This document shows positions 2,179-12,109 of a stretch of 32,009 bases of DNA, piece by piece. Below the pieces are notes generated by a model. It was not told the origin of the DNA and made no database searches. It was given only the letters and a program-made list of their open reading frames with translations. Position 1 is the stretch's first letter. Each line of letters begins with the position of its first letter. Position numbers and translations under genes: made by a program. The DNA comes from Acidobacteria bacterium RIFCSPLOWO2_02_FULL_61_28 (GTDB lineage Bacteria; Acidobacteriota; Terriglobia; 2-12-FULL-54-10): the NCBI GenBank assembly GCA_001767035.1, contig MEKR01000196.1, positions 1 to 32,009 on the forward strand, written 5' to 3'.

Positions 2179-2952
2179 ATGGAACAACCTTACAGCGTGC
2201 GCCTCGAAGCCTACGAAGGCCCGCTCGACTTGCTGCTCGACCTGATTCGCAAGCAGGAAATCAATATTTACGACATCCCGATTGCGAAGATCACCGGGCA
2301 ATACCTGGACTATGTGCAGCATAATCTCGACCGGCTGATTCCGGAAGCGGCCGGCGAGTTCCTGCTGATGGCGGCGACCCTGATCCACATCAAGTCGCGG
2401 TTGCTGCTGCCGCCCGATCCGACGCTCACGCCCGAGGAGCAGGAAGACCCGCGGGACGAGCTGGTCGCGCAACTGCTCGAGCACGAGAAATTCAAGCGAG
2501 CCGCCCAGATGTTGCAGCAAAAGCACGTGGTGCAGAGCGCCACGTGGTCGCAGCCCGGCTTGAGCGCCTTCCTCGACCCGGAGGCCGAGCCGAGCCTGTC
2601 AGTCACGGTCTACGATCTGGTCCGTGTTTTCCAGCAGGTTATCGAGCGCGCCAAACAGAAGCCGCTGCTCGAAGTGGAAGAGGAACGAGTCACGGTCGGC
2701 GAGATGATGCAGCATTTATGCCGTCTGCTCGCCGCCCGCCGGGAAGCCTTGCCGCTTAGCGAAGCGCTTGCAGGGCTGCGCTCCCGCGACGCCCTTGTAG
2801 CCACCTTCCTGGCTCTGCTCGAACTCATCCGCCTGCAAGCCGTGGCCGCGCGCCAGAAAGACTTGTTTGGAGAAATCCTGTTGCGCAAGTATCGTATGTT
2901 TGATGAGGTGGTCGCAAGAACACAGCGGGGAGTGGACGAGGGGTATCAGTAG
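2179..2952 (+). CDS. scpA: Segregation and condensation protein A (kleisin)
   Basis: ScpA is the kleisin subunit that bridges the SMC heads and binds ScpB in the bacterial condensin complex on the nucleoid. The N-terminus YSVRLEAYEGPLDLLLDLIRK is the family hallmark, followed by INIYDIPIAKIT and an AATLIHIKSRLLLP helix. The C-terminal winged-helix part ends with FLALLELIRLQAVAARQ and a DLFGEI-like tail. I prefer the ATG at 2179 (257 aa). An upstream in-frame ATG at 2134 would add residues encoded by the repeat at 2138-2166. scpB follows after 127 bp. No strong ribosome binding site is visible at either start. Confidence 0.95.
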   Translation: MEQPYSVRLEAYEGPLDLLLDLIRKQEINIYDIPIAKITGQYLDYVQHNLDRLIPEAAGEFLLMAATLIHIKSRLLLPPDPTLTPEEQEDPRDELVAQLLEHEKFKRAAQMLQQKHVVQSATWSQPGLSAFLDPEAEPSLSVTVYDLVRVFQQVIERAKQKPLLEVEEERVTVGEMMQHLCRLLAARREALPLSEALAGLRSRDALVATFLALLELIRLQAVAARQKDLFGEILLRKYRMFDEVVARTQRGVDEGYQ

Positions 2953-2959
2953 ATGAGAA

Positions 2960-2995
2960 GGGAATAGGGAACAGGGAATAGGGGACAGGGAACAG
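2960..2995. repeat. GGGAACAGGGAATA purine-rich iteron run between scpA and scpB
   Basis: Five imperfect copies of a GGGAAYAG-like heptamer lie in tandem just after the scpA stop. Related units in both orientations occur at 5124-5190. It is a short intergenic repeat of unknown role and carries no palindrome by itself. Confidence 0.7.
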
Positions 2996-3079
2996 AAAGC
3001 GGGAAGTAGCGGTCGACAAGCGCACCTCCATTCCCCAGTCCCGACCTCCTGATACCTGCAATCCAGCGTAGGACACAAC

Positions 3080-3775
3080 GTGGAATATCAAGGATCAGAC
3101 CAAACCTTGCAAGCAACCGTGGAAGCGATCGTGTATGTGGCCGACGAGCCGGTGACGGTCGAGCAAATCGCCATCGCGCTGGGAGGGGTGAGCCACGACG
3201 CCGTCCGAAACGCGTTGCGGGCGCTCCAGGAAAAATACCGCAGCGACGAGCACGGCATCGAAATCTGCGAGATCGCCGGCGGCTACAAGATGTTCACCAA
3301 ACCGGAACACCACGAGACGGTCCGGCGTTTTGTGAAGGAACTGACGGCGCCGCTGAAGTTCTCGATGGCGGCGCTCGAAACGCTGGCGACCATCGCGTAT
3401 CGCCAGCCCGTCACCTTGCCGGAGATTCAGCAAATCCGCGGCGTGGACGCCTCCGCCGCCGTCAAGACGCTGCTCGACCGCAAGCTCGTGACCACGGCGG
3501 GACGCAAGAGCGTGATTGGCCGTCCGATCCTCTATCGCACGACCAAGGAGTTCCTGAAGCACTTCGGACTGAGCGGCATAGACGAGTTGCCGAGTATCAA
3601 GGAATTCGAGGAATTGGCCCGCGCCGCGCTCGGCGACATTCTGAGCAGCCCTGTCAGCGATGCTTCCGCCGACGCTGGTAGCGACGCTTTTGGCGACGCG
3701 CTGCCGGAACCGGAGCCGGACGATGCTCCTCCGCAAGCTGTCCCAGAAACCGCCAAGGATAGCGATGGCGCTTGA
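3080..3775 (+). CDS. scpB: Segregation and condensation protein B
   Basis: ScpB is the KITE subunit of the SMC-ScpAB condensin, a tandem winged-helix dimer. The N-terminus LQATVEAIVYVADEPVTVEQ, the middle EICEIAGGYKMFTKPEH, and LSxAxLETLATIAYRQPVTLPEIQQIRGVD followed by GRPxLYRTTKEFLKHFGL are diagnostic. Length is 231 aa with an acidic, disordered Asp/Ala/Pro-rich tail from about residue 190. The GTG at 3080 is chosen because an AGGA lies about 8 bases before it and it gives the expected N-terminus. The 3' end overlaps rluB by 11 bases, indicating translational coupling. Confidence 0.96.
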   Translation: MEYQGSDQTLQATVEAIVYVADEPVTVEQIAIALGGVSHDAVRNALRALQEKYRSDEHGIEICEIAGGYKMFTKPEHHETVRRFVKELTAPLKFSMAALETLATIAYRQPVTLPEIQQIRGVDASAAVKTLLDRKLVTTAGRKSVIGRPILYRTTKEFLKHFGLSGIDELPSIKEFEELARAALGDILSSPVSDASADAGSDAFGDALPEPEPDDAPPQAVPETAKDSDGA

Positions 3776-11458: not shown

Positions 11459-11665
11459 CCGTTTCTTTCTCTTGGGAGTTAGGCTTTTTTTCGCCGCCCC
11501 GAAAGAAATACTTTACACCATCGCAGGAGCAATTCCGAATCCCGGTCTTGGTGGAAAAAGGCGGTTGATACCGAGTTCTGACTTTCGGCGTTGCTCCGTA
11601 CCAGTTACGTGCGGTAGAATTCGCATTAGCTCATGAAAAACTATTTCTTGCGCTCAGGAGGCAGA

Positions 11666-12109
11666 ATGGCCAAGAGAGTTTCGCTCGTGTTTGCCTTGTC
11701 GGCGGTGATCCTCATCGCCAGCCTGGCGGCGGTCGCGCAGGGGCAAACCGCCCAACAGCCGGGGCGGATCGCCGTCACCGATCTGAAGAAAAAACTGGAT
11801 AGCGGCGAAAAATTCCTTTTGATTGATGTCCGCGAAGACTGGGAACTGAAACAGGACGGCGCCATTGCCGGCGCTATCCACATCCCCGTGGCAGAGCTCG
11901 ACGCGCGGATGAAGGACATCCCGAAAGATGTCCAGATCGTGTTCTACTGAGCGGGCGGAGGGCGCGCGGAGCGCGCCGCTGAAAAATTCATCAAGGCGGG
12001 TTACCACGCGGGTCCGTTCTGCGGAATCCGGGACTGGAAAAAAGAGAATCTGAAGGTAGTCGAAAAGGTAGACCGTCCAGCCCCCGGACCGATCCGGCCA
12101 AAGCCGTAA
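11666..12109 (+). CDS. Exported rhodanese-like protein with in-frame TGA at the catalytic Cys (candidate selenoprotein)
   Basis: Rhodaneses move sulfur through a persulfide on an active-site Cys. Here 147 codons run from ATG 11666 (AGGAGG 4 bases upstream) to TAA 12107-12109, if the TGA at 11948-11950 (codon 95) is read through. A signal peptide or anchor spans residues 1-25. The domain has LLIDVREDWE (51-60), AGAIHIPVAEL (69-79), then IVFY-[TGA]-AGGGRAERAAEKF, then KAGYHAGPFCGIRDW. The TGA sits exactly where the family has its nucleophilic Cys (IVFYC-x4-R pattern). The 52 codons after it are coherent and complete a normal rhodanese. A 7-bp GC-perfect hairpin starts 10 bases after the TGA. 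This supports selenocysteine at position 95. The alternatives are a nonsense mutation or a sequencing error (TGC to TGA). A conventional gene call would stop at 11950. Confidence 0.75.
11948..11980 (+). promoter_or_regulatory. Putative bacterial SECIS hairpin after UGA
   Basis: Following the UGA (11948-11950), GGCGCGC (11961-11967) pairs perfectly with GCGCGCC (11971-11977) around a GGA loop. Three more pairs are possible at the base (AGC 11950-11952 with GCT 11978-11980) across an asymmetric internal loop. The UGA-to-apical-loop distance is 17 bases and the loop begins with G, both within the usual description of bacterial SECIS elements. The hairpin lies inside the coding sequence, as expected for bacteria. 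Confidence 0.6.

What the first reader, a model, noticed from the sequence alone, without database searches (positions are those of the whole stretch)
11666..12109. Candidate selenocysteine rhodanese: TGA replaces the catalytic Cys with a SECIS-like hairpin next to it
The ORF would be called as a 94-residue fragment ending in IVFY. Reading through the TGA gives a complete exported rhodanese whose TGA is at the exact nucleophile position, with 52 coherent downstream codons and a normal TAA stop. A perfect 7-bp hairpin with a G-initial loop begins 10 bases after the TGA. Rhodanese-related proteins have been predicted as Sec-containing in metagenomic surveys. Exchange of active-site Cys for Sec in a sulfurtransferase would change its persulfide/selenosulfide chemistry; the export signal suggests a periplasmic redox or selenium-handling role.
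Basis: partly seen in the sequence, partly recalled or inferred. Interest (0 to 1): 0.88.

Follow-up and report, generated by a model that had tools for sequence, protein, structure and literature searches.

The report
Exported selenocysteine rhodanese of Acidobacteriota
An acidobacterium appears to make a small exported sulfur-handling enzyme (a rhodanese) in which a "stop" codon is read as selenocysteine exactly at the catalytic position; related bacteria show that this is real, widespread in their class, and a member of a kind of selenoprotein that was predicted before but, as far as I could find, not studied at the bench.

Summary
ORF 11666-12109 is a complete, exported, single-domain rhodanese interrupted only by TGA (11948-11950) at the nucleophile position. 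Among 89 homologues from the same class whose codon I read, that column is TGA in 56, TGC/TGT in 33, and nothing else. Downstream sequence is conserved. The hairpin 11961-11977 meets all four published bacterial SECIS constraints. In relatives with another SECIS form (CGUGC loop) the stem covaries with compensatory changes. The one Cys ortholog in the window's own family keeps the protein motif but has lost the hairpin through synonymous Arg codons. The genome has native selA, selB and a selD that itself carries TGA at its Sec site. The only tRNA-Sec found in the bin lies on a contig that looks foreign; 17 of 20 relatives have a clear tRNA-Sec. Sec decoding is very likely (about 0.95). What the enzyme does is inferred: persulfide/thiol redox chemistry outside the cytoplasm, with U95 as nucleophile and C119 as possible partner. 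Sec rhodaneses were already predicted (Sargasso Sea 2005; five forms in a 2026 review), so this is a new member of a known kind, notable for its breadth in Acidobacteriota and a clean Sec-to-Cys reversion.

The parts
11656..11661 (+). Shine-Dalgarno AGGAGG, 4 nt before ATG 11666
   Evidence: read directly
11666..12109 (+). Sec rhodanese gene, 147 residues with Sec at 95, TAA stop
11666..11737 (+). N-terminal signal peptide (residues about 1-24, MAKRVSLVFALSAVILIASLAAVA)
   Evidence: n/h/c regions read from sequence; hydrophobic N-terminus in 49 of 56 Sec homologues, some with a lipobox-like Cys (simple hydropathy heuristic); no dedicated predictor was available
11948..11950 (+). TGA read as selenocysteine (U95), catalytic nucleophile of the UX4R loop
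   Evidence: 56 TGA / 33 Cys / 0 other in homologues; aligned to catalytic Cys
11961..11977 (+). SECIS hairpin: 7-bp stem, GGA loop, 17 nt from the UGA
   Evidence: constraints; lowered synonymous change in codons 100-105; lost in the Cys ortholog
12020..12022 (+). Cys119 codon, candidate resolving residue (FCGIRDW, where many rhodaneses have GG)
   Evidence: position after strand 114-118 in the model

Best explanation
The gene encodes an exported single-domain rhodanese in which UGA is decoded as selenocysteine at the catalytic nucleophile position, driven by a SECIS hairpin just downstream and the cell's SelA/SelB/SelD machinery (very well supported, not shown by experiment). Outside the cytoplasm Sec95 most likely attacks sulfane sulfur or an oxidised thiol, forming a selenenyl-sulfide intermediate (inferred). 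The intermediate is then resolved by thiols, possibly by Cys119, which sits at the end of the strand following the Sec-bearing one (inferred). Net role: persulfide/thiol redox or sulfur transfer in the envelope (inferred, about 0.6).
For: Column is TGA in 56, TGC/TGT in 33, nothing else in 89 homologues. Downstream codons 106-117 vary mostly at synonymous sites (mean ps about 0.62 vs pn about 0.25), while SECIS codons 100-105 have ps 0.23. The hairpin meets loop, stem, spacing and energy limits. In 33 distinct Sec homologues with a CGUG loop, 92% of stem cells pair, 19 cells show two-sided changes (shuffles 6.5), covariation 0.30 vs 0.11 (0/500), slid controls at most 0.10. CGTGC loop in 37/56 Sec vs 1/33 Cys forms. 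The Cys ortholog L036 has AGA/CGA Arg codons that break the stem. Native selB (74% to sister genomes), selA, and selD with TGA at its UxxK site. 52 of 55 other TGA genomes have SelB above cut-off (my count); 17 of 20 relatives have tRNA-Sec. Rhodanese fold confirmed by model and Foldseek.
Against: No proteomic or selenium-incorporation data. No native tRNA-Sec was found in this bin: the only one lies on contig C197, and it is 62-65% identical to those of family sisters that share 90% or more among themselves. SelB is also present in most Cys-form genomes, so its presence does not discriminate. C119 is absent in 15 of 56 Sec forms. No conserved gene neighbours point to a substrate.
Confidence: 0.9

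Rival explanations
1. The TGA is a true stop: the gene is a pseudogene or makes a truncated 94-residue protein, and the rest is decaying.
For: Mechanical ORF calling ends the frame at the TGA.
Against: The same TGA is kept across many genera and several families, the codon is otherwise only Cys, and downstream sequence is under purifying selection.
Confidence: 0.02
2. Sequencing or assembly error of TGC to TGA.
For: Reads were not available.
Against: Independent assemblies from many genera show TGA at the same codon.
Confidence: 0.005
3. TGA is read as another residue (e.g. Trp or Cys by code change or suppressor tRNA) without selenium.
For: The native tRNA-Sec was not found in this bin.
Against: Only Cys alternates with TGA, a SECIS is present and covaries, and SelA, SelB and SelD are native.
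Confidence: 0.03
4. It is a Sec rhodanese, but acts as a classical thiosulfate sulfurtransferase or a selenium carrier, and C119 plays no catalytic part.
For: 15 of 56 Sec forms lack Cys at 119; a selenium-substituted rhodanese was reported (Ogasawara 2001, seen only as a reference in PMC5877670).
Against: Export places it away from cytoplasmic SelD (inference); C119 is kept in every member of the window's own family examined.
Confidence: 0.35

Closest known systems
Predicted Sec-containing rhodanese-related sulfurtransferases, forms 1, 2 and 4 (PMC1088965; PMC9312934; PMC13188914)
   Same: Rhodanese domain PF00581 with a Sec motif starting at U; forms 2 and 4 are listed with UxxG, which the window protein has (UAGG)
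   Different: Acidobacteria are not named at all in the two reviews searched; the representative sequences could not be fetched, so clade identity was not tested
NF041203 rhodanese-related (seleno)protein, LYCAU motif (form 3)
   Same: Rhodanese domain selenoprotein
   Different: Listed motif CxU, Sec two residues after a Cys; here Sec itself is at the nucleophile; score 46 vs cut-off 115
TsoB rhodanese/DsbD fusion-like selenoprotein (NF045694, form 5)
   Same: Sec in a rhodanese domain
   Different: Fusion-like protein with two Sec (UxxxxU); score 29 vs cut-off 805
Exported single-domain Cys rhodanese PspE
   Same: Single-domain rhodanese with signal peptide
   Different: Cys nucleophile; NCBIfam PspE scores 20-22 vs cut-offs 102-126
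Thermoplasma rhodanese-related protein 3gk5
   Same: Best fold match, TM 0.89 on the target, 31% identity
   Different: Uncharacterised, not described as a selenoprotein

Membership tests
Rhodanese homology domain (PF00581) | Domain score above Pfam gathering cut-off | tested here: met
   55.7 bits vs 22.2
Rhodanese homology domain (PF00581) | Catalytic residue in six-residue CX4R-type loop after strand 4 | tested here: met
   U95-AGGG-R100, strand 90-94, helix from 100; Cys replaced by Sec
Rhodanese homology domain (PF00581) | Sulfurtransferase activity | not testable with these tools
   needs protein
Bacterial selenoprotein | In-frame TGA aligned with Cys of homologues | tested here: met
   56 TGA / 33 Cys / 0 other
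Bacterial selenoprotein | bSECIS: 3-9 nt loop, 4-16 bp stem, G in first two loop positions, 16-37 nt spacing, MFE at most -7.5 | tested here: met
   3 nt GGA, 7 bp, 17 nt, -12.9 kcal/mol (limits)
Bacterial selenoprotein | SelA, SelB, SelD in the genome | tested here: met
   C183, C17, C12
Bacterial selenoprotein | Native tRNA-Sec | tested here: inconclusive
   only on a foreign-looking contig; present in 17 of 20 relatives
Bacterial selenoprotein | Selenium shown in the protein | not testable with these tools
   needs 75Se or mass spectrometry
Sec rhodanese forms 2/4 (UxxG) | UxxG motif in PF00581 | tested here: met
   U95-A-G-G98; G98 invariant; motif listed
Sec rhodanese forms 2/4 (UxxG) | Sequence clade with the named representatives | not testable with these tools
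   MBM9537886.1 and MCY3690685.1 were not available
NF041203 rhodanese LYCAU | Curated cut-off and CxU motif | tested here: not met
   46 vs 115 bits; motif here is F-Y-U-A
TsoB (NF045694) | Curated cut-off, rhodanese/DsbD fusion | tested here: not met
   29 vs 805 bits; single domain

The most novel reading that the evidence does not exclude
A large exported clade of Acidobacteriota rhodaneses uses a Sec95-Cys119 pair on neighbouring strand ends as a selenenyl-sulfide redox couple, making it an envelope oxidoreductase (persulfide or disulfide reductase) rather than a sulfurtransferase.
Probability: 0.35. Interest if true: 0.65.

Novelty: new member of a known kind. Interest (0 to 1): 0.45.

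Why it matters
Sec rhodaneses appear in selenoprotein inventories as predictions, with no characterised function in the texts I could read. Mechanical ORF calling cuts the gene at the TGA, so an exported selenoenzyme can be missed in many acidobacterial genomes. The set provides natural Sec/Cys pairs, including a reversion that erased its SECIS by synonymous change. That makes the question of what Sec adds to a rhodanese directly testable.

Tried and rejected
Rfam on the region found nothing near a gathering threshold, as expected since bacterial SECIS elements vary. The MFE z-score alone was not significant, and z-scores did not differ between Sec and Cys forms (p = 0.11); only the bSECIS-type hairpin energy differed (p = 3e-6, but sequences are related). 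Gene neighbourhood: no window neighbour recurs beside the homologues, and Pfam on ten flanking genes of homologues showed nothing tied to sulfur or selenium. Counting the C197 selA-selB-tRNA-Sec cluster as native was rejected: SelB there is about 35% identical to native ones that share 60-74% within the family, and its neighbours (Rieske oxygenase-like, UbiD-like, porin-like) look proteobacterial (gene names by eye, not by search). SelB presence as a discriminating test failed because most Cys-form genomes have it too. Model coordinates were not returned, so the U95-C119 distance was not measured. A sequencing-error reading, a pseudogene reading and a code-change reading were considered and rejected (see rivals).

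Full report
Observation. The sequence is as described: ATG 11666 behind AGGAGG, TGA 11948-11950, TAA 12107-12109, 147 residues with Sec at 95. The protein scores 55.7 bits against Pfam Rhodanese, across the TGA, and the TGA falls on the catalytic Cys of solved rhodaneses. The AlphaFold2 model has pLDDT of 92 or more over most of the domain, and its best PDB matches are rhodaneses (3gk5, E = 5e-8).

Comparative evidence for Sec. A scan of genome contigs found seven close Acidobacteria homologues; six have TGA and one (L012, the same sequence as L036 of genome G023) has TGC. A search of 399 genomes of the class, with the codon read in 89 loci including the window, gave 56 TGA, 30 TGC and 3 TGT at this column and nothing else. 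The tree needs at least nine Sec/Cys changes at face value, though strongly supported branches force only one. The Cys ortholog of the window's family lies inside the Sec clade in that tree, so it is most simply a reversion.

Selection. Between family members, codons 106-117 change mainly at synonymous sites, while codons 100-105, which form the hairpin, have reduced synonymous change (mean ps 0.23 against about 0.6 further on). In the Cys ortholog the residues G-G-R-A-S-R-A-A are written GGCGGCAGAGCCTCGCGAGCTGCT, so the palindrome is gone without changing the protein motif. That is what is expected if the hairpin exists for Sec insertion and not for the protein.

SECIS. The window hairpin has a 7-bp stem, GGA loop, 17-nt spacing and -12.9 kcal/mol, within the four limits of the bSECIS model quoted in PMC13188914. 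Closest relatives keep GGCGCGC-GGA-GCGCGC(C/U); a neighbouring family has GUC in the loop. More distant Sec forms use a different hairpin with a CGUGC loop 21 nt after the UGA, present in 37 of 56 Sec and 1 of 33 Cys forms. Its stem shows compensatory changes well above shuffled and slid controls. The shuffles do not account for relatedness, so the slid controls are the better guide.

Machinery. The own genome (91.7% complete, 0.86% contamination by the tool's figures) holds SelB on C17 (60-74% identical to family relatives), SelA on C183 and SelD on C12 whose own TGA lies in a UxxK motif. A second selA-selB-tRNA-Sec set on C197 is foreign-looking by SelB identity, tRNA identity, tetranucleotide profile (0.895 against 0.94-0.97 for the other three sel contigs, short stretches) and gene content. 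The native tRNA-Sec was therefore not found in this bin, but 17 of 20 relatives have one. Of the 55 other genomes with the TGA form, 52 have SelB above cut-off (my count); the three without (G006, G031, G233) are draft assemblies.

Mechanism. Nearly all Sec forms start with a hydrophobic signal-like stretch, several with a lipobox-like Cys, so the enzyme most likely works outside the cytoplasm. The active-site loop keeps the rhodanese UX4R spacing. In the window's family Cys119 replaces the first Gly of the usual GG and directly follows strand 114-118, while Sec95 directly follows strand 90-94. From general knowledge of the rhodanese fold these strands are parallel neighbours, so the two residues could meet; this was not measured. 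C119 is commoner in Sec (41/56) than Cys forms (12/28; Fisher p = 0.009, not corrected for relatedness). I therefore favour persulfide/thiol redox or sulfur transfer in the envelope, with less confidence than the Sec claim itself.

Known or new. Rhodanese-related selenoproteins were reported from the Sargasso Sea survey and listed in later work, the 2026 review naming five forms including two with UxxG. The window protein has UxxG. It does not meet the NCBIfam cut-offs for the CxU or TsoB forms. It is thus a new member of a known kind, with unusually good comparative support and no experimental work found in the texts searched.

Noticed in passing
G000:C197 (L122, 1-12904): A 12.9-kb contig with selA, selB and tRNA-Sec beside Rieske-oxygenase-like, UbiD-like and porin-like genes looks like a proteobacterial contaminant in the bin.
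   Followed up: partly
L126 (G000:C12:30000-36000), minus strand about 2300-3418: SelD is itself a selenoprotein (AAGUASK, TGA at the UxxK site).
   Followed up: yes
L036 minus strand 1501-1896; L012 340-735: Natural Sec-to-Cys reversion with loss of the SECIS by synonymous Arg codons AGA and CGA.
   Followed up: yes
L057, L059, L064, L069-L072, L074, L087: One family has the CGUGC SECIS with a U-C mismatch in the third stem pair, reminiscent of the bulged U of E. coli fdh SECIS elements (from memory).
   Followed up: partly
G000:C183 (L124, 2786-4621): The native SelA frame carries an insert of about 40 residues (NPSRERERAGNPSREQPAPPALSAVEGSLSRDERAGTS) that looks like an interspersed repeat read in frame; similar PSRDRQGA/RDRKGA stretches occur in window ORFs.
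   Followed up: no
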